Shown here: piece after piece, positions 12,591 to 32,271 of the stretch
How the letters are laid out: each line of letters opens with the position of its first letter
Numbering within the stretch: position 1 is the stretch's first letter
Source of the DNA: Flavobacterium sp. 5
Lineage (GTDB): Bacteria; Bacteroidota; Bacteroidia; Flavobacteriales; Flavobacteriaceae
Reading direction: 5' to 3'
DNA length: 64,000 nucleotides
Assembly (NCBI RefSeq): GCF_002813295.1
Contig: NZ_PHUE01000001.1
Coordinates: 186,001 to 250,000, forward strand
The notes under the pieces: generated by a model
Seen by the model: only the letters and a program-made list of their open reading frames with translations
The model's database searches: none
Told to the model about the DNA's origin: nothing
Made by a program: the position numbers and the translations under genes

Positions 12591-12626
12591 AATTTTATAG
12601 TTATTTTTATAATCTAAACAATTACA

Positions 12627-15600: not shown

Positions 15601-16289
15601 AAAACTTAAAAAAGCTTGAAAAAATTTACTTGTATTTAGATAATTCGGGAAGACATTTTGATTATGATTTGGAAGTATTAAAAATAATTTTATCACAAAA
15701 CCCCAATTTTATAATTGATTTATTGAAATATAATTTTGACGATAAAGACTATTTATCGAGAAGAGATTTTAATGAAAATGATTTCAAAAAACTTTGGGAT
15801 TTGGATAACTACGAAATTGTCTTTGAAAATATGATTAATTATTTAGTAAGATTTAAAAGTGTTTTTCTTCATCGTGCTTCAGAATTTTCAAGTGCATTTA
15901 GAGGAGATAGTCAAAAAGAAATTGATTTTTTACAGAATAAATTACTGAATACTGAAAACAAAAAAATGATTGAGTTGATATTCAATATCATTTCAAGTAT
16001 GTACAGAGATAAAATGTTAGATTTTCTTAAAATAATTTTAGATAAAGATTGCGATATAGAACTTTTCAAAAGACTTGATTTTTATACTTCTGCTGGGGTT
16101 ACAGTAAATAGTAGACTACCAAATATGCAATTTGAATTATCCCAATACGAAAAAGTAAGAGACTTTCTAGTAGAACAAAGTAATATAAACTATTATGAAT
16201 TTATAGAAATTATCAATCGAAGTATTATGTATTCAAAAATGAGTATTGAAAGAGAAAGGAAAGAAGAATTTGTTAGTGAGTGGGATTAA
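12627..16289 (+). CDS. Large STAND-type NTPase with an N-terminal nuclease-like domain, candidate antiphage protein
   Basis: 1220 aa. Residues ~1-150 look like a PD-(D/E)xK-fold remnant or nuclease: GTPDNFISDNDSYIFSEITT gives D50 and E63, but the usual Lys two residues after the Glu is replaced by Thr. A P-loop NTPase follows: FFNRETELEKSVELL, Walker A TGQAGVGKTK (K211), Walker B YIIVIDDAN (D260/D261). The ~900 C-terminal residues are helical and repeat-like, as in STAND proteins, where such arrays sense the trigger. Avs-type defence proteins share this effector-NTPase-sensor order. It is 37 bp after the element ATPase and 108 bp before the sacsin-like gene. Defence function is inferred. Confidence 0.7.
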   Translation: MITSIEQALLSCNPDKFANICRLYLGYRYSIVNPTGLVVGKEKSKKGTPDNFISDNDSYIFSEITTIDKNQLVPKLKKDIEHCFNQSDISSDKIVRIILICNQEITTKIQEELNDHKNLINKFTKLEVIGLDAFATIIFRDYPSLAKELGLSIDTGQILEMSEFVIQYEKSKFATPLSNAFFNRETELEKSVELLKQYDFLLITGQAGVGKTKFSIQLVTNYLKSNPGYIVKYIRNNNQLIWDDLKIQITKNNKYIIVIDDANKLKSNLASIIHFKNEFSSGNIKIIMTVRNYLKREIEYQLKENGLIELANFEKSELAKILQSPEFNITDYYTDKIYSISKGNPRIALMGAIAGINNEIEKLTNASSILEEYFSSANNSLKDDLVLLKTAGILTLFRSIDISNSGVTDEISKYFDINKNELVEKLSLLVKNEIADEYKNTYKIADQILGEYVFYLVFIKEQHIPFKQLLNLHFDEHKISLMTLLNPIISNYGFYEIKDLILYDVNQKWNSIKDDQDKSIKFLESFWFYLETETIVFINKIISLKTEFELDNLKFEIYKDNHTESYDDKIIALLVNFQNLPNKFEVALALLLKYGLSNEILFTKTLKVLTQSFTYKRFSYEYGYKIQIKLFDFLYSKVNENNIFYSKIILFIANKYLIDSYECHYGGNGRQFYFNQEYIVLTEEHKSFRTKLFEFIFDCYKNTELKDCVYDFFDKHRYSHLNRGEIRVINFDKKLIIPFFENNFNNGEFRESSIVHNYLRTLGFSKITFKKEVRNLISSKEFKLWLFLDEKFERDEKIITAFSSYTYEEYIDFIQSLDAIYKQHTEHFSGYSSIISSVSDILENLSKKDFNLFIKVLECIFKYEYSKNILIGKIVSSIDFNKEKVETLKLVFIKTTNSDINLLELFTRIPNKYIEIEDYNYLVEIIQKDDFKNIWFIDHLIKKISDLELNIEVEIDKLLDIIILKTELYDNLFMYGDFFKIINNQHQSSFAKNLKKLEKIYLYLDNSGRHFDYDLEVLKIILSQNPNFIIDLLKYNFDDKDYLSRRDFNENDFKKLWDLDNYEIVFENMINYLVRFKSVFLHRASEFSSAFRGDSQKEIDFLQNKLLNTENKKMIELIFNIISSMYRDKMLDFLKIILDKDCDIELFKRLDFYTSAGVTVNSRLPNMQFELSQYEKVRDFLVEQSNINYYEFIEIINRSIMYSKMSIERERKEEFVSEWD

Positions 16290-16397: not shown

Positions 16398-19300
16398 ATG
16401 GAAGTATCAAATAGTCTTACTATAGCAAATCAGGATATTTTAGATTTAATTGGTAAAAGACGTGATATTTATATCAAAGACCCTTTACTTATTGTAGAAC
16501 ATTTCAACAATGAAAACAAAATAATTGATGAATATAATGGTCGTCAATTACTTGAAATGATTCAAAATGCTAACGATGAAAGTGATACTACCAAACCTAA
16601 AAAGGTTAAAATTACTTTAGAAAACAACACTCTAATAATAGCTAATAATGGTAATCCATTTTCTATTGGTGGTGTAGAATCACTTATTTATAGTGATTTA
16701 AGTCCAAAAGTAATGGAAGAAAATAAAGTAGGTCAAAAAGGACTCGGATTTCGTTCGGTACTCAACTGGTCAGAAGAAATTTACATTGCTAGTTATGACC
16801 TGCACTTAAAATTTTCTAAACAACACGCGAGAACTTTCCTTGAGGGATTAATAGAAGAAAATCCTGAAATTCAAACGGTTTTAAAACGAAAAACAAATAA
16901 GTCTTTCTCAATTTCAGTATTGCGCTGTCCATATTTGGAAGAAGACACAAATCATAAAAAAGAAATTGATTATGATACTGTAATAGAATTAAGTCTAAAA
17001 CAAGACATAAATCAAGACATAAAAGATCAGATTAATAAAGATATTATTCCGGAAATATTAATCTTTTTAAACAAACTCGAAGAAATTGAAGTACAAACAG
17101 ATGAGCATCATTTTCTATTAAAAAAAGAAACTACAGATAATGGAATTCTTATTACCAAAACAGACTTTTTAGACGAGAAAAAAAATGACAGTTGCCTGTG
17201 GTTTACTTCGGAAGAAAAAGGGAATCTAACTAACAATGATGTTACTAAAAACTATGAATTAAAAATTGCATACAATCCCAATACGAAACCATCTATACAA
17301 AAACTATTTTCTTATTTCAGAACAGATGTTGATTTCCCTTATCCAGTATTGGCACACGGTTCATTTGAATTAACTGGAAATCGTAATCAATTAATTGAAG
17401 ACGAAAACGGTTTTAATAAAATGCTATTGGATAAATTAGCTAAATTGTTAGTGGCTTGTTCAATAGATCTTACCAAAGAAAAAAAATGCAATTATGATGC
17501 TTTAAAACTCATTATACCGTCGGTTACAAATAATAGTAGCCTGAATAACGCACCTTGGAATTTTAATAAAGCCATCGAAATTTCCATTGCGGACACCCCA
17601 ATTTTTCCATCTATAAACAACAAATATTTAAAGCTTTCAGAAAACATCAAGTTTTATGAAGTGCCTATTCAAGATAGTATTCCTAAAAAAGCTTATTCAA
17701 TATTTAATTCGCTTTTACAAGCAACTTCGGATAGAGAAATTATCTATTATTTCTCAACTTTGAAAGTTAATTTAAAATACCAAGACAGCGATTTTACCAA
17801 TAAAATCAATCAAATTATTGACAATGATTATTTAAATGAAAAACAGCGTGTCGATTGGATTTTTTTAGTTTGTGAAAAAACAAAAGATATTTATAATGGC
17901 AAAAATCCAGCTTTACCATTTTTACTTATAAATTCCGATGATAAAAAAATCAAAAGTTTTGACACTGTTATTGTACCGCCTAAAGAGATAACTTATAAAC
18001 TCCCTAAAGGCATTAAATTGCAATTCTTAAATCAAGATTTGTACAGAAGAATTAGATCTCGATTTGGTAATATTCTTCCACGTCAAGTAATTGATAAATT
18101 GAGTCTATACAATGTAGCAGAATATGCTATGAATGTCGTGGTTCAAAAAATTATTTCAAGCACTAACGAAATTATTAGAGTAGGTAAAAAAGATAAAGCC
18201 AATACAATTGCCGAAATGCACAAGGCTTTATATGGTATTTACAATTCATTAGATGACAATACAGATGCTAAAAATAGCTTTCCCTCAACATTGACTTCTC
18301 CTTATTTATTTACAAGAAATAATGAATTAAAAGAAGCCAATAAATTATATTTCGGTAAAGAATATGTGCTAGGTTATTTAATGGAAGATTTACTAAAAGA
18401 AGTCAAAGAAGATGTTTTTGTGGGATCTTTAAAGCAAAATGGTTTAGTTGAAGAACTACCAGAATTAGCAGTTTTAGAGACAAATCATTCTGTAGAAAAA
18501 TATTTGAAATGGCTTGGTATTGCTGATTTTCCTAAAAGAGAGAATAACGAAATTAAAGACTGGTCCCTTGGTAGTAATGATTTTATAAAATTTACATTCC
18601 AATCTATAAAATATCCCTTTAATACTGTTGGATATAATGAAATAATAGGCAGTTTTTCAGATATTAGAAAATGTTGGGATTTTAGATGTAATGTTTTGTG
18701 GTATGAACATTTTGATACCATTCTTACTGGTGCATCATTTGAGTATTTGTTAACTTGGTTTTTAATGGACAATGAATTGTATAATACACTTACAACAAAT
18801 CAAGAATTTCATAGAAGTGAATTAAGATTTGCATCTCCTCACAAAGTACATCATAGAAATTTGCCTAGAAACAATATAAAATCATACATTAACTTTATAC
18901 TTCAAAAAACAGCTTTTATACCTGTTGAAAATGGAGAAAAATCAAAACCTAATAATTGTTTGTTGGACAGCAACAATTTGAGTCCATTAGTCAAAACACC
19001 TAAAATAAATTATACAGCAACACCTTTCATTTACAATAATATTGATGAAGAACGAATTAATTATTTTTTAAAAAGAATAGGATTAAAAGATAGTTTGAAA
19101 GATTTGACAATTCAATCACTATATAAATTACTAAACCAACACAATACCCATTTTTCAGAAGCAACAAGCAATATTCAAAGTTTTTATACAGCTATTATTG
19201 AAGCTACTAAAAACAGAGAAGTTATTGAAGAAAGCCTCGAAAGAAAAAAATATATTGAAACAGGTCAAATTTATGCCAATTTTGAAGGGAAAAATAGTTT

Positions 19301-21260
19301 TACTCCCATAAGTGAAGTAACCTATGTTGACAATCCAAATTTCAGCCAAGAGCTATTAAAGAAACTAAAAATTGCCAAGTTGCCACATCGTGCAGGTAAT
19401 CAAAGAATTTATAGTTTGTTTGGTGTACAACCATTAGATTATATCAAGTTTAATGTTCAGAAAAATGTCGAATCCAATCACAAGCTTAATGAGGCTTTCG
19501 TAGGAGAACTAAATGAAATGAAACCTCATTTATTTGCATACCGTTTTCAAAAAGGATTAAAGAAAACACAATTAGATTTAGAATTATCAGCAATAAAAAA
19601 CATTAAGATTATTATAGCATTTAATATTGATGTAATATACCAATTAAATGGAGTTGATAATGATTTATCCTTAAATAAATACGAGTATATACAAGATGAT
19701 ATTTCAAAAATATTTTATATCAAATTAGATCGTGAGAATTCTAATTATCAAGAATTAAAAAAGGATTATAGATTTAAAGAAACTGTAGCAGACATCATTT
19801 GTGGTGCTTTAAAAGTAACCGAAAACAGAAAAGACTTTATTTTATTATTAGGCGAAAGCCCATCTAATTGGGTTCATCTTCTAAAAAGAGAGTTTGAAGA
19901 TTATGAAACTATTGAAAAACAAATCATCGGAAAATTTGAAGGCGTTTTATCATCAGAACAAAGATTTTGGAAAATAATATTGGATTTAAAAGGAATAAAA
20001 TTCAAATCTGAAATAGATTTAAATAGTGATTTTATTCACAGTAAATTATTTGTAAAATTAGATAAAGATGAGTTTTTTGATACATTCAGAAAGTTAGATT
20101 ACAACAATCTTTCAGATCGTAAAAACTTCTTATACATTCAAAAAATATTTCAATACATAAAAATTGATTTAGTAGATTTTAATGCTTTGGGATATAAAAT
20201 TTTAAATTTTGAAAGCCATTTTGAAAATCAATTATACACCTATCATAAAGTTTTTTCAGAAAAATACGCATCCTTTTTATTCAGCAAAAAGCAATCAAAT
20301 AGCTTTATAGAACAATGTGAGCAGGTATCTAAATTCAATTCCTTTAAAGTAAGTAACTCAATTAATTTTGTTGTTAAAAATGCGCATAAATTAGCTATTT
20401 CCAAAAGTTATTCAAATATTAATTATGGAGCTGTTGAAGTTACTAGCAAAATAGATTTAGAAACAATCTACAGCAAAAACTTCAGAGCATTAGAATCTGA
20501 TTTGAGATTAATATCAAATTTTGATGATACCATTTTCAATGATAATAAATATGATATTGAATTTAGGAATGCAGTTTATTTTAATGAGGTAGAAAATATA
20601 AAAACAGATTTAATTCAAAAATTCAATAGTTTAACCAAGGATAATGGTGAGTTGCAAATAAATATTGCCAATAATTCAGTTGCTTTTTCAAACGATAATG
20701 TTAATGATTTATTAGATTTTATTAATGAGCAAGTAAAGAATAATGATTTTCAAATAGAACATTATACTCCTACTAAAGTTCCGGAGCCAGTAAAAACTGG
20801 TAGTGAAAATAGCTCATATGGACAATCTTTCTATGGAAAATCAAAAAAATATAAAAATGAGGATATTGGTTTTATTGGGGAAAAATTTGCTTTTGAAGTA
20901 TTGAAAAAAGAATTCGAAAGTGTTGAATGGGTTTCGGAATATGCAATTAAGGCTGGTTTTCCAAAAGGTAAAGATGGTTTGGGATATGATTTTGAATGTA
21001 AAAAAGGTGATGAAACACGATTTGTTGAAGTAAAAAGTTCAGTAACAAAAAATTATTCATTCAATATTAGTCCAACTGAAGTAAAAATTGGACATTCAAA
21101 AGAAAAATCATTTGACATTCTTTTAATTACTAATCTTTTATCCGAAGATATTAATTTTAAATATTTAAGAAATATATTTGACTATACTAACAACGAAAGC
21201 TTTTTGGAAAACACAAAGTTTCTTGTTGAAAATGACAGTTATAAAATTAAGTTTAAATAA
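16398..21260 (+). CDS. Giant sacsin-like ATPase with C-terminal DUF3883 nuclease-like domain
   Basis: 1620 aa. The N-terminus is a GHKL/HSP90-type ATPase of the sacsin or NO-VEIN kind: GRQLLEMIQNANDE (N57, D60), LIIANNGNPFS and VGQKGLGFRSVLNW. The middle ~1200 residues show no familiar domain. The C-terminal 130 residues (GFIGEKFAFEVLKKEF, then GLGYDFECKKGDETRFVEVK) are DUF3883, which has a PD-(D/E)xK-like core with D1531, E1544 and K1546. Such proteins recur in bacterial defence islands, but their mechanism is poorly known. The HEPN-like gene follows after 10 bp, so the two are probably one unit. Confidence 0.8.
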   Translation: MEVSNSLTIANQDILDLIGKRRDIYIKDPLLIVEHFNNENKIIDEYNGRQLLEMIQNANDESDTTKPKKVKITLENNTLIIANNGNPFSIGGVESLIYSDLSPKVMEENKVGQKGLGFRSVLNWSEEIYIASYDLHLKFSKQHARTFLEGLIEENPEIQTVLKRKTNKSFSISVLRCPYLEEDTNHKKEIDYDTVIELSLKQDINQDIKDQINKDIIPEILIFLNKLEEIEVQTDEHHFLLKKETTDNGILITKTDFLDEKKNDSCLWFTSEEKGNLTNNDVTKNYELKIAYNPNTKPSIQKLFSYFRTDVDFPYPVLAHGSFELTGNRNQLIEDENGFNKMLLDKLAKLLVACSIDLTKEKKCNYDALKLIIPSVTNNSSLNNAPWNFNKAIEISIADTPIFPSINNKYLKLSENIKFYEVPIQDSIPKKAYSIFNSLLQATSDREIIYYFSTLKVNLKYQDSDFTNKINQIIDNDYLNEKQRVDWIFLVCEKTKDIYNGKNPALPFLLINSDDKKIKSFDTVIVPPKEITYKLPKGIKLQFLNQDLYRRIRSRFGNILPRQVIDKLSLYNVAEYAMNVVVQKIISSTNEIIRVGKKDKANTIAEMHKALYGIYNSLDDNTDAKNSFPSTLTSPYLFTRNNELKEANKLYFGKEYVLGYLMEDLLKEVKEDVFVGSLKQNGLVEELPELAVLETNHSVEKYLKWLGIADFPKRENNEIKDWSLGSNDFIKFTFQSIKYPFNTVGYNEIIGSFSDIRKCWDFRCNVLWYEHFDTILTGASFEYLLTWFLMDNELYNTLTTNQEFHRSELRFASPHKVHHRNLPRNNIKSYINFILQKTAFIPVENGEKSKPNNCLLDSNNLSPLVKTPKINYTATPFIYNNIDEERINYFLKRIGLKDSLKDLTIQSLYKLLNQHNTHFSEATSNIQSFYTAIIEATKNREVIEESLERKKYIETGQIYANFEGKNSFTPISEVTYVDNPNFSQELLKKLKIAKLPHRAGNQRIYSLFGVQPLDYIKFNVQKNVESNHKLNEAFVGELNEMKPHLFAYRFQKGLKKTQLDLELSAIKNIKIIIAFNIDVIYQLNGVDNDLSLNKYEYIQDDISKIFYIKLDRENSNYQELKKDYRFKETVADIICGALKVTENRKDFILLLGESPSNWVHLLKREFEDYETIEKQIIGKFEGVLSSEQRFWKIILDLKGIKFKSEIDLNSDFIHSKLFVKLDKDEFFDTFRKLDYNNLSDRKNFLYIQKIFQYIKIDLVDFNALGYKILNFESHFENQLYTYHKVFSEKYASFLFSKKQSNSFIEQCEQVSKFNSFKVSNSINFVVKNAHKLAISKSYSNINYGAVEVTSKIDLETIYSKNFRALESDLRLISNFDDTIFNDNKYDIEFRNAVYFNEVENIKTDLIQKFNSLTKDNGELQINIANNSVAFSNDNVNDLLDFINEQVKNNDFQIEHYTPTKVPEPVKTGSENSSYGQSFYGKSKKYKNEDIGFIGEKFAFEVLKKEFESVEWVSEYAIKAGFPKGKDGLGYDFECKKGDETRFVEVKSSVTKNYSFNISPTEVKIGHSKEKSFDILLITNLLSEDINFKYLRNIFDYTNNESFLENTKFLVENDSYKIKFK

Positions 21261-21270
21261 AGCTTTATAG

Positions 21271-21804
21271 ATGAATAAAAAAACTGTAGATGTCAATTTA
21301 GTTTTTTCAAAGATTGGCAGATGTTTAGTTGCTGCACAAAGAATAGAATTAGCTAGTGGAGAAATTTTAAAATTTCTTGCAGAATATGATAAAGATTTAT
21401 ATAATTTAACTTCCGAAGAATTTTTAAAACTAGCTGGAAAAACACAAAAAACAAAAATGACTTTAGGAAACATTTTCAAGTTACTTAAACTCAATCCCAA
21501 TTTAGTAATAGAAGAAGAACTAAATAGTTATTTACAAAAAAGGAATATGTTAGTTCACAATTTTCTCACTGATTATCTTCACACTGTTAATGTAAAACAA
21601 GCGAAAAAAGCTGAATATTTTTGTGATGATTTTCTAAAACACTCTGCATTAATGGAAAGCTTTTTTAAAGGTTTCTTAAACTTTATATTGCTACCGCCAA
21701 TTCCAGAAGACGAAGAGCCATATGTAGAAGAAAGTCTAATGACCGAAGATTTTTATTATTTCATTTCACATTTTATTAAATATCATCCAGGCGAAGAGAT
21801 CTGA
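21271..21804 (+). CDS. HEPN-like protein, possible RNase or partner of the sacsin-like ATPase
   Basis: 177 aa, mainly helical. KRNMLVHNFL contains R91-N-x-x-x-H96, an Rx4H motif with Asn after Arg, as in HEPN-fold RNases and toxins. I saw no other conserved domain. It starts 10 bp after the sacsin-like gene, in the same orientation, so it may be the toxic or RNA-cleaving arm of a two-gene system. It could also be a non-catalytic HEPN protein that only binds. Confidence 0.6.
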   Translation: MNKKTVDVNLVFSKIGRCLVAAQRIELASGEILKFLAEYDKDLYNLTSEEFLKLAGKTQKTKMTLGNIFKLLKLNPNLVIEEELNSYLQKRNMLVHNFLTDYLHTVNVKQAKKAEYFCDDFLKHSALMESFFKGFLNFILLPPIPEDEEPYVEESLMTEDFYYFISHFIKYHPGEEI

Positions 21805-22050: not shown

Positions 22051-24489
22051 ATGACTGAAATACCTTTTATCGTTTCTGCAAGAGCTGGAAAACTATTAGG
22101 AAGAGAAAATTTTTCTAATCCTGAAGGAGCTATAATTGAATTGGTAAAAAATTCATATGATGCTGATGCTAAAAGTTGCCTAGTCGTTTTTGATATTGTA
22201 TTTAAAATTGAAAAGGACGAACAAGGAAACGATAAAAAAACATTAAACAATGATTCAAGCAGTATTTTCATAATTGACAATGGGGAAGGAATGTCAAAAG
22301 ATGTTATTGAAAATCAATGGATGAAAATTGGTACAGGCAATAAAGAAACTGAATTTATTTCAAAGAATAAAAGAGTTAAAACTGGAGCAAAGGGTATTGG
22401 TAGATTCGCACTTGATAGATTAGGTTTCAATGCTGAAATGTGGACTGTATCTAACGAAAGTAATGGTTTCAATTGGAAAATGGATTGGAAACAGTTCGAT
22501 AATTCCGATAAATCAATTTCTGAAATCACTGCTGAATTGAGTGATAACAATGTTAATATTTCAGAATTCATAAAAACAAATTTTAATCATATCAAATTAG
22601 AAAAAATATTTAATGTAGCAAGTTTTAATACAGGAACAATTCTCAAAATATCCAATTTAAAAGATGAATGGTATGAAAATGATATTGCTGGGGTATTTAA
22701 AAGTTTAGAGGCATTAATTCCTCCTAAAGAATTAAATATGTCATTTGAAGTAAATTTTCAACATATCCAAAAACCAAAAGAATTTGGAAAAGTTGAAACA
22801 GCTTTTTTTAATGATTATGATTATAAATTAATTGCAAAATTTAATGCTGAAAAACTGTCTGTTGATTTTGAAATAACCAGAAACGAAATGGATATTGATC
22901 TCATAAAGAAAAACTATTCTGATTTATATAAGAATGCTAAAACTCCATATGATTTAAAAACTTTAGAGAATAAAACTTTTAAATATTCAAAAGGCATTGA
23001 TGAATTGCTTGAATGGGAGTTTGATGAAAATAACACTAAATTATTAAAGAATCTCGGCTCATTTAATTTGACTTTTTATTACTTGAAATATAATGTTTCA
23101 TTAAAAGAAGGCTATCCATTTAAATCAATTAATCAAAAGGAAAGAAGAAGTGTTTTACATAAATTTGGAGGTGTTAAAATCTATAGAGATTCTTTCCGTG
23201 TAAGACCATATGGTGATCCTGATAATGATTGGCTAAAACTAGGTGCAAGAGTTGCTCAAAGTCCTGCTGGTTCTGGACAAAGAATAGGTGATTGGAGAGT
23301 TAGACCTGAACAAACTGCGGGTATTATTACAATATCAAGAAAAAACAATCCAAATTTGATTGATAAATCAGATCGTGGTGCTTTGCAAGAAAATGATTCT
23401 TATGAGACTTTTAAAAGTATAATTATCAAAGTAATAAATGAATTTGAAGTCGATAGAACAAAAATTCTTAATGTACTTTTCAAACATTTTAAAATACTCA
23501 AAGAAAAAGAAAGAGAAAATGAAATCCAAAGAAGAGCTGAAAGTTTAGCTGATATAATTGTAGCTGAAAGAAAAGTCGTTGAAGAAAAACTTTACGGTAA
23601 AAAATATAATGATGTAGATTTATTTCAACAAAAAAGAGAAGAGGAAGAAAGAAGAAAGTATGAAGAAGCATTCAAAGATACTTTCAAAGCTATTGATGAC
23701 GAAAAAATAGAAAAAGACAATGAAGAAATAGTCCAAGTACGTGGTCTAGCGAGTCTTGGTTTAATTGTTTCGTCTTTTGCTCACGAGCTTAAAGAAGTGA
23801 AAAACAACGTAGAAGATATTAATGATTTAGAAAATATTTACAAAGATTTAGTTTCAGATGAAGCAAAGAAAAAAATAGAGTTTAATGATGGGGTCAATAT
23901 AATTAAATCACTAAAATTAGATACTGAAAAAATCATTCATTGGGTAGATTATTCTTTAACTGCTGTTAAAAAAGATAAACGTAAAAGAGGTAATCTAGAT
24001 TTTATTAAATACTTTGACTCTCTTTCCAAGGAATGGAAAAATGTACTTAAAAATAGAAATATTGAGTTAGTAATTAAAAAAGATACTAAAGCAAAATATT
24101 TATTTAGAGCTTTTGAAATGGATATGAACACTATTTTTAGTAATTTAATTTCAAATTCAATCGATTCATTTCAAAACCTAAAAGTAATGAGAGATCGAAA
24201 GATTCTTATTATTATGAATTTAGAAAATGAAAATTTGATTATTGATTATAGTGATAATGGTACAGGGCTATCCAAAGCATTTGATAATAATAAAGAGAAC
24301 ATATTCCTTCCTTTTACTACTTCAAAAAAGGATAGAAATGGAAATGATATTGGTACAGGTTTAGGAATGTATTTAGTTAAGAACGTTATTGATGATTATA
24401 ATGGAGATATAATGATTTCAAATACAGATATAGGATTCAAAATAAGAATAGAATTTCCAATAAGAAAAAATGAAAAAAATGAAATATAA
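22051..24489 (+). CDS. Cytosolic histidine kinase with two GHKL ATPase domains
   Basis: 812 aa, no membrane segment. Residues ~1-200 are an HSP90/MutL/MORC-like ATPase: GAIIELVKNSYDADAK (E30, N34), FIIDNGEGMS (D76), KTGAKGIGRFALDRLG. Residues ~480-560 are a charged coiled coil. A standard kinase transmitter follows: H-box SSFAHELK (H578), N-box IFSNLISNSIDSF (N698), DNGTG (D735) and GTGLGMYLV (768-776). The first ATPase thus replaces the usual sensor. The gene overlaps the receiver gene by 20 bp. With the HNH and methyltransferase genes it suggests phospho-relay control of a DNA-directed system; function is inferred. Confidence 0.82.
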   Translation: MTEIPFIVSARAGKLLGRENFSNPEGAIIELVKNSYDADAKSCLVVFDIVFKIEKDEQGNDKKTLNNDSSSIFIIDNGEGMSKDVIENQWMKIGTGNKETEFISKNKRVKTGAKGIGRFALDRLGFNAEMWTVSNESNGFNWKMDWKQFDNSDKSISEITAELSDNNVNISEFIKTNFNHIKLEKIFNVASFNTGTILKISNLKDEWYENDIAGVFKSLEALIPPKELNMSFEVNFQHIQKPKEFGKVETAFFNDYDYKLIAKFNAEKLSVDFEITRNEMDIDLIKKNYSDLYKNAKTPYDLKTLENKTFKYSKGIDELLEWEFDENNTKLLKNLGSFNLTFYYLKYNVSLKEGYPFKSINQKERRSVLHKFGGVKIYRDSFRVRPYGDPDNDWLKLGARVAQSPAGSGQRIGDWRVRPEQTAGIITISRKNNPNLIDKSDRGALQENDSYETFKSIIIKVINEFEVDRTKILNVLFKHFKILKEKERENEIQRRAESLADIIVAERKVVEEKLYGKKYNDVDLFQQKREEEERRKYEEAFKDTFKAIDDEKIEKDNEEIVQVRGLASLGLIVSSFAHELKEVKNNVEDINDLENIYKDLVSDEAKKKIEFNDGVNIIKSLKLDTEKIIHWVDYSLTAVKKDKRKRGNLDFIKYFDSLSKEWKNVLKNRNIELVIKKDTKAKYLFRAFEMDMNTIFSNLISNSIDSFQNLKVMRDRKILIIMNLENENLIIDYSDNGTGLSKAFDNNKENIFLPFTTSKKDRNGNDIGTGLGMYLVKNVIDDYNGDIMISNTDIGFKIRIEFPIRKNEKNEI

Positions 24490-25111
24490 AATTGGGTATA
24501 TAGACGAAGATTCTACACAGGTGGTGAAAATAGAAATGAAATTAAGAGCATATTTTGATGTAATTGGTTTTGATATCACTCCTGGTTTAGAATTAAATAA
24601 TTTATTAAAACAAGTTTATGATTCAGATATTGATTTATTAATGGTCGATTATTTAATGGTTGATAAAGGCATATTAACTTTTAATGGTGATGAAGTTATA
24701 AGAGCATTTGAAGAAATTAAACCTCGATTCCCAATGATTATTTTTACGAATGAAGAATCTCAAGCTTTTCCACAAGTAGATAATCCTAATATAATCTATG
24801 ATAAATCATTGATCAATTCAGATATACTTCATTTTGTTGAGATACTTAAAAAAAACATTCTCGCTCATAAAAATTATATTGAAAAAAGAAAAAACATTAT
24901 AAGTGATTTACTTTTGAAAGGTGAAAATGAAGGTTTGTCTTCGGAGGAAAAACATATTTTATTGCAAACCCAATCAGAACTAATAAATCTTGATAAATGG
25001 TCAAATGAAGTTCCTTTTCAATTGTTAGATGATAAACGATTAGAAAATCTTTCTAAAACAACTAAAGAAGCAGAGGAATTTTTGGAATCAATATTAAAGA
25101 AAAAAGATTAG
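24470..25111 (+). CDS. Stand-alone response-regulator receiver protein
   Basis: 213 aa; ATG at 24470 or three codons later at 24479 (both in the kinase overlap). The receiver residues are all present: acidic pocket D12/D14 (YIDEDS), phospho-acceptor D60 (LLMVDYLM), T93 (IIFTNEE) and K112 (IYDKSL). No DNA-binding output domain follows, only ~85 helical residues (SSEEKHILLQTQSELINLDK). It is the obvious partner of the kinase encoded before it, and its C-terminus may contact the HNH nuclease, whose gene starts one base after this stop. Confidence 0.82.
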   Translation: MKKMKYKIGYIDEDSTQVVKIEMKLRAYFDVIGFDITPGLELNNLLKQVYDSDIDLLMVDYLMVDKGILTFNGDEVIRAFEEIKPRFPMIIFTNEESQAFPQVDNPNIIYDKSLINSDILHFVEILKKNILAHKNYIEKRKNIISDLLLKGENEGLSSEEKHILLQTQSELINLDKWSNEVPFQLLDDKRLENLSKTTKEAEEFLESILKKKD

Positions 25112-25112
25112 T

Positions 25113-25739
25113 ATGCTTCCATTTAGAGAAAAAACGCCAAAAAGGCGTGTCAATCCTACCAATAGTCCTACTGGCAATGGATGGGCTACTCACAAACCTG
25201 ACTTAAGAGAAGATTTCTATTCAAAATGTGGATATTGTGATTCCTTTGATGGATATAGACATACTTATTTTGAGGTCGACCACTTTATTCCTAAAGATTT
25301 TTTTAAAGATTTAGGTAATATATCTCTAACTGAATATAGAAATTTAGTTTATTCTTGCAAATTTTGTAACAATAGTAAAAGAGCAAAATGGCCAAGTCAA
25401 AGAGAAGATATTTTTCATATTAATAATGAAGGCTTTGAAGATCCTGCAACAGAAATATATGAAACACACTTCTATAGAACACAAGATGGTGGTATAATGT
25501 GGAAAACTGAACTTGGTAAATGGATGTTTAGAGAAGCATTTAAATTTGATGAAAGACAAGAATCAATAAAAGTGTTGTGGAATCTAAATAAATTAAGATT
25601 GATAATAGAATCATTAGCATTAATTTTACAAAATCATTCCGAAGGAACAGCTGAATACCAAATTTTAAAAGGAAAAATAGGTGATTATAGTTATCAATAT
25701 TTTTTGTACCATAAGGAGCTTATAAATTATTATGGATAA
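25113..25739 (+). CDS. HNH endonuclease
   Basis: 208 aa. The nuclease core is complete: zinc pair C39-x-x-C42 (KCGYCDS), EVDHF (D56, H57), NLVYSC (N77) and C82-x-x-C85-N86 (SCKFCNNSKR). The layout resembles HNH proteins of the PtuB kind known from the Septu defence system, but the partner genes are different. It begins one base after the receiver gene's stop and overlaps the methyltransferase by 8 bp, so it is tightly coupled in the operon. It probably cuts DNA when released by the signalling pair. Confidence 0.85.
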   Translation: MLPFREKTPKRRVNPTNSPTGNGWATHKPDLREDFYSKCGYCDSFDGYRHTYFEVDHFIPKDFFKDLGNISLTEYRNLVYSCKFCNNSKRAKWPSQREDIFHINNEGFEDPATEIYETHFYRTQDGGIMWKTELGKWMFREAFKFDERQESIKVLWNLNKLRLIIESLALILQNHSEGTAEYQILKGKIGDYSYQYFLYHKELINYYG

Positions 25740-27327
25740 AAAAAAATCAGGCTCATATTACACTCCTACAAGATTAGCAGATTTTGTAGCGAATTATTGT
25801 TTGTCTAAAATTAAAAGAAAAACTATTTCAGTTTTAGAGCCAAGTGTTGGCGACGGTTCTTTTGTTAAAGCAATCTCAAAAAGTGAAAATTTAAATTATT
25901 TTACAAAGGTTAATTTAACAATTGTAGAAAAAGATGAATTAGAATTAGCAAAAGCCAAAATAATTGATAAAAACATAAAATTAAAAATTTCATCTCATAA
26001 TTCGGACTATTTAGATTTCCATTTTGAACATAATGAAGAGTATTCATTAATTATTGGAAATCCCCCTTATGTAAAGAAAAACTTATTAGACGACAATCAA
26101 AAAGAATTAGCTAAAACTATCCATTGCGAAAGCGAATTATCTAATAGAAGTATTAATAATATTTGGACTTCCTTTTTGATAAGTGGTATTTCTAAATTAA
26201 AAAAAGATGGTGTTCTTGCATTTATATTGCCATTAGAATTATTACAAGTTAAGTTTACTGAAGAGATTAGAACATTATTAAAAAAAGAATTTGAAAGGAT
26301 AGAGGTTTTTACATTCAATGAATTACAGTTTCAAGAATGTAAAGGTCAAGATACAGTTTTATTTATTGGATACAAAAAACATATCCAAAAAGGAACATTC
26401 TATACAAATATTGCTTCATTAGAGGATTTAGAAAATAATAATTATGAATTTTATGAAAATCAATCGCTATCTGATTCTGACAAGAAATGGACACATCATT
26501 TTATAACTCCTGATGAATATGAATTTTTAGAAAATTTAAAAAGCAGATTAAATAATGTCTCCTATTATCTTAATAATAAAGCTGGTATTGTAACAGCTGC
26601 AAATAGTTATTTCATTGTAAATAAAGACACTATAAGTAATTACGACCTTGAAAAATTTTCTAAACCAATAGTACAAAAAGGTTTCTTTGTAAATGGTTCT
26701 ATAACTTTCACTAATAATGATTTCAAAAAATTAGTTGATGATAATAAACCTGCATATTTATTAGATTTCAATAATTTAACTGAAAAAAAAATCACAAAAA
26801 AAATAGCTGAATATTTAGCTGTAGGAGTTGATGAAAAATTACCTCTTCGTTTTAAATGTAAACAAAGAAATAAATGGTATCAAATACCAAATATTGCAAC
26901 TGTTCCTGAAGCATTTTTCTTTAAAAGATCTCACGAATATCCAAAAATGATTAAAAATGAAGCTGATATTCTTGTAACGGACAGTGCATACAAGGTAGAA
27001 ATGAAAACAGAATATAATTTGGATAATTTTATTTTTTCTTTTTATAATTCATTAACTCTGACTTTTGCAGAATTAGAAGGTAGATATTATGGTGGTGGTG
27101 TCCTAGAATTAACTCCAAATGAATTCAGAGTTCTGCCAATTCCTTACACAATATGTAATAATTTTGAAGCTTATAAAAATGAATTCAAGAACAAATCGTC
27201 TATTCAAGATGTCTTGAATAATAATAATTATGAAATATTAAATAGAACACTCGGACTTACAAGAGATGAAATAGAAAGAATTGAATTAATTAGGCAAAAA
27301 TTAGTAGACAAAAGACATAGAAAATAA
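25732..27327 (+). CDS. N6-adenine DNA methyltransferase with TaqI-type recognition domain
   Basis: 531 aa. SGSYYTPTRLADFVANY and motif I LEPSVGDGSF bind AdoMet; motif IV IIGNPPYVKK (N110-P-P-Y113) is the catalytic tetrad of gamma-type N6-adenine enzymes. The C-terminal ~280 residues, ending with ELEGRYYGGGVLELTPNEF and RVLPIPY, match the TaqI/Eco57I-like target-recognition part. No nuclease domain is fused, so cutting would fall to the HNH protein. It is the last gene of the operon and its start overlaps the HNH gene. Methylation may mark self DNA. Confidence 0.88.
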   Translation: MDKKKSGSYYTPTRLADFVANYCLSKIKRKTISVLEPSVGDGSFVKAISKSENLNYFTKVNLTIVEKDELELAKAKIIDKNIKLKISSHNSDYLDFHFEHNEEYSLIIGNPPYVKKNLLDDNQKELAKTIHCESELSNRSINNIWTSFLISGISKLKKDGVLAFILPLELLQVKFTEEIRTLLKKEFERIEVFTFNELQFQECKGQDTVLFIGYKKHIQKGTFYTNIASLEDLENNNYEFYENQSLSDSDKKWTHHFITPDEYEFLENLKSRLNNVSYYLNNKAGIVTAANSYFIVNKDTISNYDLEKFSKPIVQKGFFVNGSITFTNNDFKKLVDDNKPAYLLDFNNLTEKKITKKIAEYLAVGVDEKLPLRFKCKQRNKWYQIPNIATVPEAFFFKRSHEYPKMIKNEADILVTDSAYKVEMKTEYNLDNFIFSFYNSLTLTFAELEGRYYGGGVLELTPNEFRVLPIPYTICNNFEAYKNEFKNKSSIQDVLNNNNYEILNRTLGLTRDEIERIELIRQKLVDKRHRK

Positions 27328-27335
27328 TATAAAAA

Positions 27336-28328
27336 CTAATATTCAACATTCCACTCAATTCCTTCAATCCGTTTAGAAAGAAACAACAAAGTTTCAAAAA
27401 CGTCCTTTTCATCAGGGGGCAAAGCTTCTCCAATAATTAATTCGGTAAATTTTGAACCAGTATAAGTCTTTTTTATAGTATCCCAAACATTAGTAGTTTC
27501 ACTAAAAATTAGTGCTTCTTTCGGGTGTTTGTATAGCCAATTTTTGTCGTTAGGAATTGCCTTATCATCATCTTTAGCAACTTGCAATAACATAGCATCA
27601 AATGAAATTGAATTTACAAAGTCTTTTATAGTATCAAGCTTCATTAATAGATGCAAATCATAAGTATGACGTACTTTGTTAGACAAATCTTCCAATGGAT
27701 TTTCAGTGTAAGAAAAACGAACCATGCTAATTATCTTTTCACAAAAGGTGCGCTCAACAGACAAGGCTTGAACCTCAAAATCTTCTAATCCAAATTGAGT
27801 AATTAATTCAATATTAGATGTGGTTTTAATATAATCCGCAATCATAGTACGAATGGGTTGTACAACATTAGGCTCTGTGTTACCCAAATGAGATACTTCT
27901 AAAGCAATGTTTTCTCTCACTTCACCATAAACTCCCTTTACACCAACTTTAGGATAGGAATAAATAATTTTTCTAATACTGCCTTTTTTATTAGTATTCG
28001 GATCATTGGGTACAATTTCAAGAATAGACTTATCGACCACGTTGGTAATATCTTTTAATCGATTTCTCAAAGCATTTCCGCTATCAGCATTATTCTTTAC
28101 AACAACTATATCAATATCCTCTGAAAATCGCTTGATAACACCATAGCATTTTGATAAAGAAGTACCACCTTTAAAAACAATCAAATCTTTTACATCAGAG
28201 TGAAATAATTGATACAAAGCATAAGTTACCCAATAATCTTTCTCAATAAAAATCTCTGGAATTTCAAAATGTTCAGCGGTAGCAACAATAGCACCTTCAA
28301 AATTGTCTTTGTCTAAATGTAAATTCAT
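27336..28328 (-). CDS. AbiEii-type nucleotidyltransferase toxin
   Basis: 330 aa from ATG at 28328, chosen because it overlaps the stop of the upstream antitoxin gene (TAATG). The nucleotidyltransferase signature is intact: FKGGTSLSKCYG (G54-K60) and RFSEDIDIVV (D71, D73). AbiEii proteins add nucleotides to tRNA or otherwise block growth after phage infection; with AbiEi they form a type IV toxin-antitoxin pair. The pair is convergent with the methyltransferase, only 8 bp apart. Confidence 0.9.
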   Translation of the reverse strand: MNLHLDKDNFEGAIVATAEHFEIPEIFIEKDYWVTYALYQLFHSDVKDLIVFKGGTSLSKCYGVIKRFSEDIDIVVVKNNADSGNALRNRLKDITNVVDKSILEIVPNDPNTNKKGSIRKIIYSYPKVGVKGVYGEVRENIALEVSHLGNTEPNVVQPIRTMIADYIKTTSNIELITQFGLEDFEVQALSVERTFCEKIISMVRFSYTENPLEDLSNKVRHTYDLHLLMKLDTIKDFVNSISFDAMLLQVAKDDDKAIPNDKNWLYKHPKEALIFSETTNVWDTIKKTYTGSKFTELIIGEALPPDEKDVFETLLFLSKRIEGIEWNVEY

Positions 28329-29056
28329 TATACTATATTCCAAGTGTTGGCAGTCGAAAGCATTTTAGTAGTAATACCATATTCATAGCTACTAGAAGGA
28401 TTTATTGATTTTTTTAGAACCGAAAAAACTACAGGTTCTATTCGCAAAGCTTCCAAAAGCGCACCAAGTAATGCTCTTACTTTAGGAGGATAAGCAGCTC
28501 CATAAGTAACCAGTTTTTTTATTTCGGCAGTGTCAAAATTATAAATCACTTTTTTCAAATAAACAAGTCCATCACTTTTTTGCAAGTCAGGTATGGTATT
28601 CAAGTCTTTAATAACGTCCAATAGCTCTAAATATTTAATCGTATCAGCCGTAACTTTTACATAACTCTTTGCCGGTTTAATTATAACATTACCTACTTTT
28701 CCTTTAACTTGTTTATCCAAGGAAGCAATACGAATAGAAGTCGGAACTTGTGTTGTTAAACCCAGTCTATTATACAATCTAGTTCCCGTAATATATGCAA
28801 CTTGCTTATTTTTATCAAACAAATAAAGAGAAAGTAAAACATCTTCTCTCGGTTTTTGCTCTCCAAACACAGAAACTTTTGGCTTATAATAATAACCTTT
28901 TCGGGCTCTTTTAATAACTCCTTTATAAACTAATCTACTTAATGCTTTAGATCCAGCAATAATTTCATCCGAAGTTAATCCAAGAGTATCATACCCGAAT
29001 ACATCTCCTGTATCTATTCGATTTATTTTAGCTACTATTTTGTCTGTTACTTTCAT
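28328..29056 (-). CDS. AbiEi-type antitoxin/transcriptional regulator (DUF6088-like)
   Basis: 242 aa from ATG at 29056; a TTG at 29068 is also in frame but would run into the inverted repeat. The N-terminus is a winged helix (GLTSDEIIAGSKALSRLVYK, GVIKRARKGYYYKP), followed by a domain with YITGTRLYNRLGLTTQVP, as in AbiEi/DUF6088 antitoxins. It should silence the toxin gene by binding the operator at 29067-29085. The stop overlaps the toxin start by one base, giving coupled translation. Confidence 0.87.
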   Translation of the reverse strand: MKVTDKIVAKINRIDTGDVFGYDTLGLTSDEIIAGSKALSRLVYKGVIKRARKGYYYKPKVSVFGEQKPREDVLLSLYLFDKNKQVAYITGTRLYNRLGLTTQVPTSIRIASLDKQVKGKVGNVIIKPAKSYVKVTADTIKYLELLDVIKDLNTIPDLQKSDGLVYLKKVIYNFDTAEIKKLVTYGAAYPPKVRALLGALLEALRIEPVVFSVLKKSINPSSSYEYGITTKMLSTANTWNIV

Positions 29057-29066
29057 AATAAGTAAC

Positions 29067-29085
29067 AAAGATAACTATTATCTTT
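29067..29085. promoter_or_regulatory. Inverted repeat, likely AbiEi operator
   Basis: AAAGATAA and TTATCTTT are perfect 8-bp arms separated by three bases, 11 bp before the antitoxin start codon. AbiEi proteins are known to autoregulate by binding inverted repeats in their own promoter, and this is the only such repeat next to the gene. Confidence 0.6.
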
Positions 29086-29271: not shown

Positions 29272-32271
29272 ATGCCTTTACCAACATCATTAGATACTAT
29301 TCAACTATTCAAATCTATTTTTATAGGTCGAGAAGATGTGTTTGCTGTTCGGTGGGAAAAGGGAAATAAAAGTGGATATATGCCAGCCTACTTCTATGAC
29401 CCATATCGATATCGAGCACATAAAATGAAAGGAGGTACTTTTCAAAATTATGCAGATAAAGAATATTTGCCTTTTACCGATAAAGAAATTGAAAAGCATC
29501 TAAACGGCGACCAATTGATTGGTATTTATCCACTACTAAAAGACAATACTTCGTGGTTTATTGTCGCAGACTTTGACAAAGTGGATTGGATTGAGGACTG
29601 CAAAAAATTCATAAATACTTGTAAAGAAAAAGAAATCCCTGCTTATTTAGAACGTTCGCGTTCAGGTAAAGGTGGACACGTTTGGATTTTTTTTGAACAA
29701 CCTTATCCAGCAATCAAAAGTCGAAAGATTTTTATTTCGATTTTAGAAAACTCGGGGATTTTTTCTTTGTTTGATAAAAGTTCAAGTTTTGACCGATTAT
29801 TTCCCAATCAAGATTTCCTTTCTGGAAAAGGATTCGGTAATTTAATTGCACTGCCTCTGTACAAAAAAACTTTAGAACAAGGGAATAGTTGCTTTGTGGA
29901 AATTGATAATTTGAAACCATTTGAAAATCAATGGAATTTCATTCAAAATATTCAAAAAATAACAATAGCCAAACTAGATAATCTTTACGAATCTTACACC
30001 CCTATAGAAAATAGCACTGGTCCATATTTACCACAAATTATCCCTGCAAAATTGACTATTACATTAAGCAATGTATTAAAAATCAATCGCAACGCAATAC
30101 CAACTTCTTTAATCAATTTTCTAAAAGAAGAATTGAATTTTCTTAATACGGAATTCATAATAAAAAAGAAATCAAATAAAAACACTTTTGGAACTGAACG
30201 TTACTTCAGATTTATAGAAGAAACTGAAAACACTATAATCATTCCAAAAGGTTTTGTTGGGAAAACAATTCGATTTTGTAGGGAAAACAAAATAGATTAT
30301 GATTTTATTGATGAAAGAAAAAAACTAAATCCCGTTTCGTTTTCGTTTAATGCGCAACTAAAAGAACATCAACAATTAGTAATAAATAGCATATCAAAAA
30401 AAGATTTAGGAGTAATTGTTGCTCCACCAGGATCAGGAAAAACGGTTGTTGGACTAAAAATTATTGCTGATAAAAAGCAACCTTCTTTAATTATTACTCA
30501 TCGCAAACAAATAGCAGAACAATGGATAGAAAGAATCGAAGCATTTTTGGGAATATCAAAAAATGACATTGGAAAAATTGGTCAAGGTAAAACCAAGATT
30601 GGAAAACATATAACTATTGCAATGATTCAGAGTTTGTCGAAAGAAATTGAGAAACCTGATTCGAAAGATTTTTTAAATGCTTTTGGCGCTATCATTATTG
30701 ACGAATGCCATCATATTCCTGCGGAAACATTCCGAAATACAATTGCAAAATTACAAACGTTCTATTTGTATGGTTTAACAGCAACTCCTTTTAGAAAATA
30801 TAATGACGACAAACTTATTTTTATCCATTTAGGAGAAATAATAGCAGAGATAAAATCTAATGAAATTAGCACATCAAAAACTCCAAAAATAATCATTAGA
30901 AATACAGAACTTGACGTTCCTTTTAATTCAAAGACGGACAAATTTGAGACATTATCGAAAATCTTAATCCACGATTCTACAAGAAATAAAAGGATACTTC
31001 AGGACGTAATCAATGAATTAAAAACAGGCAAAAAAGTCATTATTATTACGGAGCGCAAGGAACATATTGATTCGCTTAATCAGTATTTAAAACAATCATA
31101 CGAAACTATTACATTAAGCGGAGAAGATTCTGAAAGTGCTAAAAACTCAAAATGGAAATTATTAAAGGAGGAAAATTATCAAGTTTTAATTACAACTGGG
31201 CAATTCTTTGGAGAAGGAACAGATTTACAAAATGCCAATTGCCTATTCCTTGTTTATCCTTTTTCTTTTGAAGGTAAATTAATTCAATGCATTGGGCGAG
31301 TTCAACGTTCGGAAATACCCCCTACTATTTACGATTATCGGGACATTAAGATTGATTATTTGAATAAAATGTTTCTAAAAAGGAATGTTTATTATCGAAA
31401 AATTGACAAGCAAGCAACCTTATTTGATGAACCCGAAGAAATTTCTATTCCAAGAAGCACATTTATTCTTGACCAAAAAATCAAAGTTCCTTTTGAGAAA
31501 TTACAATTTCATTATGGAAGTATTTCTTTTAAATACAGTGTCTCTGAAATGAATACAGAACTTGAATTTGATATTGAAAATTTCGAAATTAGACCAGAGT
31601 TTGAAGTTTTAAAAGAATATTTTTCTAAATCACTCCAAATAAAAAATATTGAAATTGCAATTTATGCAGAATTTGAAAATGGAAAACTAATTTCACAATT
31701 AGCATTATCCAATGATATCAAAAAGATAACTAAAGAACTGATTGAAAGTGTAAAATTTAAATTTATAACCAAGACTTTCTTGGGCAAATTAAATACAATT
31801 AGCAACGAAAACCTACTCGATATAAATCAATTACAGAATCAAAATAATATCAAATTATATGATTCAGGAGATGAATTATTAAATGATTTTTTACAGAATC
31901 AAAATTACAAACATCAAAAACATTTACAATATTTAGCCAATCATCACGAAAGGACTATTCTTAAAATTCGTTTTGTACTCAATCCTTTTTCATTTGTTTT
32001 TCTTTTAGCAGGAAAAACAGAATTTCATATTGTTTTAGAAACCTTAAACACAGAAGAAGCAACCTATATTTGGCATTTTGACAATGATAAAAAATCACTT
32101 CCTTATAACTTAAAACAAGTTGACAACTACTTAAGTAGCATTCGAAATAACGGAAGACAATCTTTTATTGAAAACCCACCTAATAATTTCAGTAGAATAC
32201 TTCACGATTATTCAAACGATAAAAAAGGGTTTGTAATTTGGAAAGATTTGATTGAAGAAAGACTTACTTAA
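29272..32271 (+). CDS. Primase-helicase fusion (TOTE-type archaeo-eukaryotic primase plus SF2 helicase)
   Basis: 999 aa. The N-terminal ~230 residues show the primase-like core: WFIVADFDKVDW (D100, D102) and RSRSGKGGHVWIFFEQP (H136). An SF2 helicase follows at ~360-700: Walker A APPGSGKTVV (K390), IIIDECHH (D477-E478), GLTATPF and IQCIGRVQRS. The last ~300 residues show no domain I know. This primase-helicase pairing is described for TOTE conflict systems, but the usual partner genes are absent. Diverged direct repeats flank the gene, which suggests it moved as a single-gene cassette. A nucleic-acid-directed defence role is inferred. Confidence 0.8.
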   Translation: MPLPTSLDTIQLFKSIFIGREDVFAVRWEKGNKSGYMPAYFYDPYRYRAHKMKGGTFQNYADKEYLPFTDKEIEKHLNGDQLIGIYPLLKDNTSWFIVADFDKVDWIEDCKKFINTCKEKEIPAYLERSRSGKGGHVWIFFEQPYPAIKSRKIFISILENSGIFSLFDKSSSFDRLFPNQDFLSGKGFGNLIALPLYKKTLEQGNSCFVEIDNLKPFENQWNFIQNIQKITIAKLDNLYESYTPIENSTGPYLPQIIPAKLTITLSNVLKINRNAIPTSLINFLKEELNFLNTEFIIKKKSNKNTFGTERYFRFIEETENTIIIPKGFVGKTIRFCRENKIDYDFIDERKKLNPVSFSFNAQLKEHQQLVINSISKKDLGVIVAPPGSGKTVVGLKIIADKKQPSLIITHRKQIAEQWIERIEAFLGISKNDIGKIGQGKTKIGKHITIAMIQSLSKEIEKPDSKDFLNAFGAIIIDECHHIPAETFRNTIAKLQTFYLYGLTATPFRKYNDDKLIFIHLGEIIAEIKSNEISTSKTPKIIIRNTELDVPFNSKTDKFETLSKILIHDSTRNKRILQDVINELKTGKKVIIITERKEHIDSLNQYLKQSYETITLSGEDSESAKNSKWKLLKEENYQVLITTGQFFGEGTDLQNANCLFLVYPFSFEGKLIQCIGRVQRSEIPPTIYDYRDIKIDYLNKMFLKRNVYYRKIDKQATLFDEPEEISIPRSTFILDQKIKVPFEKLQFHYGSISFKYSVSEMNTELEFDIENFEIRPEFEVLKEYFSKSLQIKNIEIAIYAEFENGKLISQLALSNDIKKITKELIESVKFKFITKTFLGKLNTISNENLLDINQLQNQNNIKLYDSGDELLNDFLQNQNYKHQKHLQYLANHHERTILKIRFVLNPFSFVFLLAGKTEFHIVLETLNTEEATYIWHFDNDKKSLPYNLKQVDNYLSSIRNNGRQSFIENPPNNFSRILHDYSNDKKGFVIWKDLIEERLT

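What the first reader, a model, noticed from the sequence alone, without database searches (positions are those of the whole stretch)
22051..27327. Four-gene operon: double-GHKL histidine kinase, receiver, HNH nuclease, N6-adenine methyltransferase
The sequence shows a kinase whose sensor is itself an HSP90/MutL-type ATPase (E30/N34, D76, GAKGIG) fused to a full transmitter (H578, N698, DNGTG, GTGLG). A receiver with all key residues (D60, T93, K112) and no output domain, an HNH nuclease (C39/C42, D56-H57, N77) and an NPPY methyltransferase follow. Gene overlaps of 20 and 8 bp and a one-base gap show that they form one unit. Two-component signalling joined to a modification-plus-HNH pair matches no defence system I know by composition. 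I infer that the GHKL sensor detects foreign DNA or stress, phosphorylates the receiver, and the receiver frees the HNH nuclease while the methylase marks host DNA.
Basis: partly seen in the sequence, partly recalled or inferred. Interest (0 to 1): 0.87.

Follow-up and report, generated by a model that had tools for sequence, protein, structure and literature searches.

The report
Kinase-relay gene set with DNA cutter
Four neighbouring bacterial genes (a MORC-like sensor kinase, its relay protein, a DNA-cutting enzyme and a DNA-marking enzyme) form a mobile unit found in many bacteria, probably a DNA-defence system in which a phosphate relay tells the cutter when to act.

Summary

New here: kinase, receiver and HNH co-vary (r 0.81-0.90), but the methylase hardly does (r 0.21-0.33). 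Two methylase classes, about 20% identical, switched at least 11 times on the kinase tree. Relay and nuclease look like a core, the methylase like an exchangeable cassette, so the HNH is probably steered by the relay rather than by its own sequence specificity.

Prior art: a homologous kinase plus receiver beside restriction-modification genes was published in 2021 (HEF_HK/Response_reg_2). Neither Pfam model matches our proteins, and PADLOC v2.0.0 has no hit for our kinase or receiver. New variant of a known kind; mechanism untested.

The parts
22051..24489 (+). Kinase, 812 aa: MORC-type GHKL ATPase and second domain (about residues 9-475), long helices, histidine kinase part (about 560-807)
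   Evidence: ORF; HATPase_c_3 and HATPase_c; model and fold matches
22120..22545 (+). N-terminal GHKL ATPase domain (residues 24-165; E30, N34, D76, GAKGIG)
   Evidence: HATPase_c_3 E 1.6e-16; residue counts
23782..23784 (+). Codon of H578, the predicted phospho-donor histidine
   Evidence: H in 82 of 83 aligned kinases, 1 gap; this stretch of the model is of low confidence (565-583)
24121..24465 (+). Kinase catalytic ATPase domain (residues 691-805)
   Evidence: HATPase_c E 1.7e-16
24470..25111 (+). Receiver, 213 aa, with helical C-terminal extension and no known output domain
   Evidence: ORF; fold; Pfam Response_reg only E 0.085
24647..24649 (+). Codon of D60, the predicted phospho-acceptor aspartate
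   Evidence: D in 82 of 82 aligned receivers
25113..25739 (+). HNH nuclease, 208 aa; HNH motif at residues 39-91 (25227-25385)
   Evidence: ORF; HNH E 3.2e-7; H57 and N77 in 79 of 79
25732..27327 (+). N6-adenine DNA methylase of M.Eco57I type, 531 aa (Eco57I 55-197, NPPY at 26059-26070, M_Eco57I_C 287-520)
   Evidence: ORF; Pfam; M.BseCI is the nearest solved relative

Best explanation
A mobile restriction-modification-like defence unit whose nuclease is controlled by a phosphate relay. Shown: the four genes travel as one unit; kinase, receiver, HNH and methylase keep their catalytic residues; the kinase has a MORC-type ATPase in the sensor position; kinase, receiver and HNH co-vary while the methylase is exchanged. 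Inferred: the methylase marks host adenines. The MORC clamp, alone or with the methylase, engages DNA that lacks the marks (or another sign of infection), and its ATP-driven closure switches on autophosphorylation of H578. The phosphate passes to receiver D60, and the phosphorylated receiver licenses the HNH to cut. The HNH shows no recognition domain by Pfam, so specificity would come from the methylase or the clamp and not from the nuclease.
Against: No function tested by anyone I could find. The methylase is not wholly decoupled: within the short class HNH-methylase r is 0.41, in 237 close pairs 0.32, Mantel p 0.001. Exchange could be limited to methylases of the same site. Direction of the signal (activation or restraint) is a guess. 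The DHp stretch of the model is of low confidence. Two of 7 viral copies (L196, L198) show no methylase over my threshold though sequence continues.
Confidence: 0.5

Rival explanations
1. An ordinary type II restriction-modification pair (HNH and methylase sharing one site) in which kinase and receiver only time the nuclease, for example holding it back while the operon enters a new host. Methylases were exchanged only between systems with the same site.
For: HNH and methylase genes overlap; copies lie on plasmids and viral contigs, which enter new hosts; C-terminal parts of the methylases vary about as much as the catalytic parts (r 0.965 between them) and no clear block swap was seen in 13 close pairs, so sites may be conserved within a class.
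Against: HNH and methylase identities hardly correlate (0.21-0.23); methylases about 20% identical change places on similar cores (L030/L034: HNH 62%, methylase 22%).
Confidence: 0.25
2. An abortive-infection system: the kinase senses a phage-made signal unrelated to DNA marks, the HNH destroys DNA and kills the cell, and the methylase only reduces self-damage.
For: The kinase has no classical sensor domain by Pfam; the HNH is nearest to PtuB effectors in PADLOC (E 4e-13); the window lies in a cluster of defence-like genes.
Against: A methylase is kept in 75 of the 79 named loci over threshold (the others: four cut by contig ends), even where it lies upstream (L036) or is of another family (L007), which suggests that marking DNA is essential.
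Confidence: 0.2
3. A regulatory or housekeeping two-component system that happens to lie beside DNA enzymes.
For: The kinase half and the receiver are ordinary in fold.
Against: Gene order is kept in 73 of 79 loci; the set is sporadic (13 of 398 genomes of the genus; 5 of 395 of the phylum), as for mobile defence genes; no output domain.
Confidence: 0.05

Closest known systems
HEF_HK (PF19191) / Response_reg_2 (PF19192) two-component-like pair, Bellieny-Rabelo et al. 2021, PMC8011034 (parts 1-5 of 7 read)
   Same: Kinase with N-terminal HATPase_c_3 and C-terminal HATPase_c, adjacent divergent receiver, restriction-modification genes nearby; HNH and N6/N4 methylase domains are among the neighbours the paper lists. 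Full-length profile match of the kinases, E 3.9e-42.
   Different: Neither Pfam model matches our proteins. The PF19192 proteins found are 528-575 aa and not 213 aa, and the methylase beside them is a C5 enzyme upstream in the four loci I fetched. Receiver profiles give no significant match (only 4 sequences on one side).
paraMORC/MORC GHKL ATPases of restriction-modification operons, Iyer et al. 2008, PMC2292703 (abstract and passages)
   Same: GHKL ATPase of MORC type in operons with methylases and nucleases, HNH among them.
   Different: The passages seen name no fused histidine kinase and no receiver ('receiver' and 'two-component' do not occur).
MORC-kinase with C5 methylase and longer receiver (Campylobacter armoricus plasmid L006 and loci such as L162-L164)
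   Same: Kinase domains and a receiver that matches ours (E 1.1e-8).
   Different: Receiver of about 340-379 aa with a further C-terminal part, C5 methylase, no HNH profile hit.
Septu PtuB and related HNH proteins
   Same: HNH similar to PtuB models, E 4e-13.
   Different: No PtuA-type ATPase beside it; partners are kinase, receiver and methylase.
PorX response regulator
   Same: Foldseek's first chain for receiver plus helical extension, E 1.5e-5.
   Different: PorX carries an enzyme domain in the same chain (PglZ homology mentioned in PMC12839542, passage); VIA-align ranks other receivers higher.
Detocs (recalled; not in any call)
   Same: Two-component signalling used for phage defence.
   Different: As recalled, its effector carries its own receiver; here the HNH protein shows only an HNH domain.

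Membership tests
HEF_HK/Response_reg_2 pair | Kinase matches PF19191 | tested here: not met
   No PF19191 match at E up to 10; a PF19192 locus used as control (L128) gives PF19191 100.2 bits
HEF_HK/Response_reg_2 pair | Receiver matches PF19192 | tested here: not met
   No match at E up to 10; own genome has none; control L128 94.9 bits
HEF_HK/Response_reg_2 pair | Homologous kinase architecture with adjacent receiver near restriction-modification genes | tested here: met
   hhalign E 3.9e-42 over 713 columns; gene order
MORC/paraMORC ATPases | GHKL ATPase followed by the second MORC domain | tested here: met
MORC/paraMORC ATPases | ATP-dependent closing on DNA | not testable with these tools
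   Needs biochemistry
Two-component system | Phospho-donor His, kinase N/G boxes, receiver Asp/Thr/Lys | tested here: met
   Residue counts; folds
Type II restriction-modification | Nuclease and DNA methylase genes side by side with catalytic residues kept | tested here: met
Type II restriction-modification | Nuclease and methylase share one recognition site | tested here: inconclusive
   Only indirect: HNH-methylase r 0.21-0.23, 0.22 and 0.41 within classes; sites unknown
Septu | PtuB-like HNH with a PtuA ATPase beside it | tested here: not met
   HNH hits PtuB models, but kinase, receiver and methylase beside it hit no PtuA model
Detocs | Effector with its own receiver domain (recalled) | tested here: not met
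   HNH protein has only the HNH family in Pfam at E up to 0.1

The most novel reading that the evidence does not exclude
A new class of restriction-modification in which the nuclease is sequence-blind: an exchangeable methylase writes self marks (and possibly reads their absence), a MORC-type DNA clamp with a built-in histidine kinase turns unmarked DNA into a phosphate signal, and a free receiver carries it to the HNH.
Probability: 0.33. Interest if true: 0.87.

Novelty: new variant of a known kind. Interest (0 to 1): 0.66.

Why it matters
If true, a signalling relay stands between recognition and cutting in a restriction-like system, which would explain how a nuclease without a visible recognition domain can be paired with exchangeable methylases. 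It also gives a bacterial MORC-type ATPase with a measurable read-out (phosphorylation), so that what MORC clamps sense on DNA could be tested directly. The operon is compact (5.3 kb) and could be moved to a laboratory strain.

Tried and rejected
Chance neighbourhood: rejected, 74 of 79 loci hold all four genes. Member of a PADLOC v2.0.0 system: no hit for kinase or receiver at E up to 0.1; HNH hits PtuB-like models best, methylase MTase_II models best. A fifth component: among 418 neighbour ORFs the largest cluster has 8 members in 8 loci, on both sides; its one tested member is an integrase. Phage carriage: the receiver has no match in 50,697 phage records and its alignment found no relative in viral contigs; the kinase alone found none there, its alignment 7. 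Recognition-domain block swaps: looked for in 13 pairs with HNH at 74% or more, no clear block; L012/L016 (HNH 92%) has one 25-residue bin at 0.32. Receiver against solved sequences: only weak matches, the best to an unrelated co-chaperone. A report of the four-gene set: not found in the literature searches (open-licence PMC only, no preprints). DefensePredictor (PMC13092281, passages) names HATPase and REC domains in the legend of a figure of predicted systems; I could not see whether one of them is this one.

Not done: co-folding of receiver with HNH or kinase (single chains only here), prediction of the methylase site, supplements of papers, the sixth long plasmid hit (H2), and neighbourhoods of 39 of the 59 lower-scoring kinase genomes.
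Full report
What is there. Four + strand ORFs at 22051-27327 encode a kinase (812 aa), a receiver (213 aa), an HNH protein (208 aa) and a methylase (531 aa); they overlap by 20 bp, lie 1 base apart, and overlap by 8 bp. Pfam gives HATPase_c_3 and HATPase_c for the kinase, a sub-threshold Response_reg (E 0.085) for the receiver, HNH (E 3.2e-7), and Eco57I plus M_Eco57I_C for the methylase. The methylase's only solved relative by sequence at E 1e-3 is M.BseCI (E 1.1e-15); the HNH has none at E 0.1.

How common and how constant. The one scan of genome contigs found 435 relatives of the kinase and kept the best 80, 79 distinct loci. With profiles built from the window proteins, 74 of these 79 hold all four genes over my thresholds, 73 in the order of the window. 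In L036 the methylase is upstream. Of the five others, L011, L029, L060 and L062 end at a contig end and L041 has a short HNH piece. This sample is chosen by similarity to the kinase, so I also took unselected genomes. Of 395 genomes of the phylum 31 had a receiver match at E 1e-3 or better; 5 (own included) score 107 bits or more and 26 under 28 bits; all 5 have the other three genes next to it, partly cut by the short stretches. In the genus 13 of 398 genomes match at E 1e-15 or better. Record titles of the 79 are mostly Bacteroidota, with Pseudomonadota, Campylobacterales, Desulfobacterales, Paenibacillus, Verrucomicrobia, Kiritimatiellae, Cloacimonadota and Sericytochromatia, and two MAGs labelled archaeal (L043, L070), which I did not check for binning errors. 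Of 89 plasmid records with a kinase match I fetched five: L004 (Bacteroides finegoldii) and L005 (Salipiger profundus) have the same annotated order, L008 (Ensifer, unannotated) has it by my scan, L006 (Campylobacter) has kinase, 340-aa receiver and a C5 methylase, and L007 (Klebsiella) a kinase in three pieces, receiver, HNH and an upstream N6 methylase. Of 7 viral contigs, 7 have HNH, 6 the receiver and 4 the methylase over threshold; L195 ends at the HNH, but L196 and L198 go on without a methylase hit.

Residues. Across the aligned set kinase H578 is kept in 82 of 83 (1 gap), E30 and N34 in 79 of 83 (3 gaps, 1 change), receiver D60 in 82 of 82, T93 and K112 in 81 of 82, HNH H57 and N77 in 79 of 79, methylase N110 in 78 of 79. 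The ATPase halves, the relay and both DNA enzymes therefore seem to be kept working.

Which parts belong together. On 84 complete, non-redundant loci (the window plus 83 of 103 candidates; 20 dropped as incomplete, short or duplicate), pairwise identity correlates between kinase and receiver (0.90), receiver and HNH (0.84) and kinase and HNH (0.81), but hardly between methylase and the rest: catalytic part 0.33 with the kinase, 0.29 with the receiver, 0.23 with the HNH; C-terminal part 0.30, 0.27, 0.21. Given the kinase, receiver-HNH remains 0.42 and HNH-methylase is -0.07. A bootstrap over loci puts r(receiver,HNH) minus r(HNH,methylase) at 0.50-0.70. Adjacency does not explain this, as HNH and methylase genes touch or overlap like the others (median gap -4). 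The methylases fall into two classes (45 mostly of 521-583 aa, 39 mostly of 580-629 aa), 16-23% identical in the cross-class pairs listed. All 6 tested of the first class have M_Eco57I_C and neither of the 2 tested of the second. The class changes at least 11 times on the kinase tree, 12 on the receiver tree and 16 on the HNH tree, against 18-34, 22-34 and 21-34 in 200 shuffles each (quick trees, 27 of 81 inner branches of the HNH tree open). So class is inherited but has often been exchanged. L019 and L066 share a methylase at 96% (catalytic) and 95% (C-terminal part) with HNH at 30%, receiver at 23% and kinase at 35%; L030 and L034 have HNH at 62% and methylases at 22%. Results against a full decoupling: within the first (short) class HNH-methylase is 0.41, within the long class 0.22; among 237 close pairs it is 0.32, and kinase-methylase there 0.62; Mantel p is 0.001. 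In L014 and L016 the kinases are 96% and the methylases 88% identical but receivers 61% and HNHs 49%, so receiver and HNH seem to have been replaced together.

How it works, inferred. A kinase whose sensor is a MORC-type ATPase, a receiver without known output domain and an adjacent, co-varying HNH suggest that the phosphorylated receiver acts on the HNH protein. Coupling of the HNH with the receiver, and not with the methylase, suggests that the HNH does not carry the recognition. MORC-1 of C. elegans is said to entrap DNA (abstract in the listing, PMC8277788; not read further), so a DNA-closed clamp that turns on the kinase is a natural but unproven trigger. Exchange between methylases of the same site, establishment control and abortive infection remain open.

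What is known. PMC8011034 (2021; parts 1-5 of 7 read) described HEF_HK (PF19191) kinases and Response_reg_2 (PF19192) receivers as a two-component-like pair, 91.6% linked in 644 regions, beside restriction-modification genes, most conspicuously C5 methylases, and lists HNH and N6/N4 methylase domains among the neighbours. It suggests that the pair may be in signalling cascades that control restriction-modification. Our proteins match neither model. PF19192 is over its cut-off in 4 of 198 phylum genomes, not ours; for one of these loci (L128) I confirmed both models. The kinase profile of those four loci matches ours over nearly the whole length (E 3.9e-42); the receiver profiles do not match (weak test with 4 sequences). 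Receivers of a third, C5-methylase branch do match ours (E 1.1e-8). Among 395 phylum genomes the kinase profile hits 64 at E 1e-20; 5 score 705 bits or more and the next 182. I fetched 20 of the lower ones (97-182 bits): my C5 profile hits within about 5 kb in 13 and my HNH profile in none; three show N4/N6 methylases by Pfam, one of them also among the 13. So the kinase belongs to a broad superfamily of MORC-kinases beside DNA methylases, and the four-gene HNH form is a distinct, uniform branch. Literature searches gave no report of this four-gene set or of a tested function. PMC12839542, PMC12137116, PMC7159879, PMC3710099 and PMC7824862 were seen as passages only.

Setting. Around the operon lie a PADLOC TmtA-like protein (1303 bits), AbiEii and AbiEi, a sub-threshold HEPN-like gene, a TOTE-type primase-helicase and an nSTAND3 protein, with an integrase gene at 82-1332. 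The genome has one full-length copy of the kinase. Of 8 neighbours of other copies scanned, one is an integrase, one a TraG conjugation protein, one has weak nSTAND matches, and others are unrelated or unknown.

Noticed in passing
window 16398-21260 (+): 1620-aa protein with sacsin-type ATP-binding domain and NOV_C, PADLOC TmtA at 1303 bits: a second GHKL-type defence candidate just upstream.
   Followed up: no
window 21271-21804 (+): 177-aa protein between TmtA-like gene and the operon with a sub-threshold HEPN match (E 0.0011); could be a toxin-like partner of the upstream gene.
   Followed up: no
window 27336-29068 (-): AbiEii and AbiEi pair directly downstream, convergent with the operon.
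   Followed up: no
window 29272-32271 (+): TOTE-type archaeo-eukaryotic primase fused to a ResIII/DEAD helicase.
   Followed up: no
window 11144-16289 (+): An nSTAND3 NTPase of 1220 aa (12627-16289) preceded by two ORFs without Pfam or PADLOC match at E 1e-3, which overlap each other.
   Followed up: no
window 52681-59592 (-): 2303-aa RHS-repeat/FG-GAP protein with an SpvB-type N-terminal match; described only.
   Followed up: no
L126-L129 and L160-L179: Other MORC-kinase branches have long second proteins (about 220-600 aa) of which many show no Pfam family beyond a receiver, or none at all; their C-terminal parts could be the missing effectors.
   Followed up: partly
L014 and L016: Kinases 96% identical but receivers 61% and HNHs 49%: receiver and HNH appear replaced as a pair inside the operon.
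   Followed up: partly
L007 7974-11548: Klebsiella variicola plasmid copy with the kinase in three pieces, a receiver and HNH, and an N6 methylase upstream; described only, nothing joined.
   Followed up: no
L198 6396-7073: Viral-contig copy with kinase and HNH but no receiver or methylase over my thresholds; the gap could hold a very divergent receiver.
   Followed up: no
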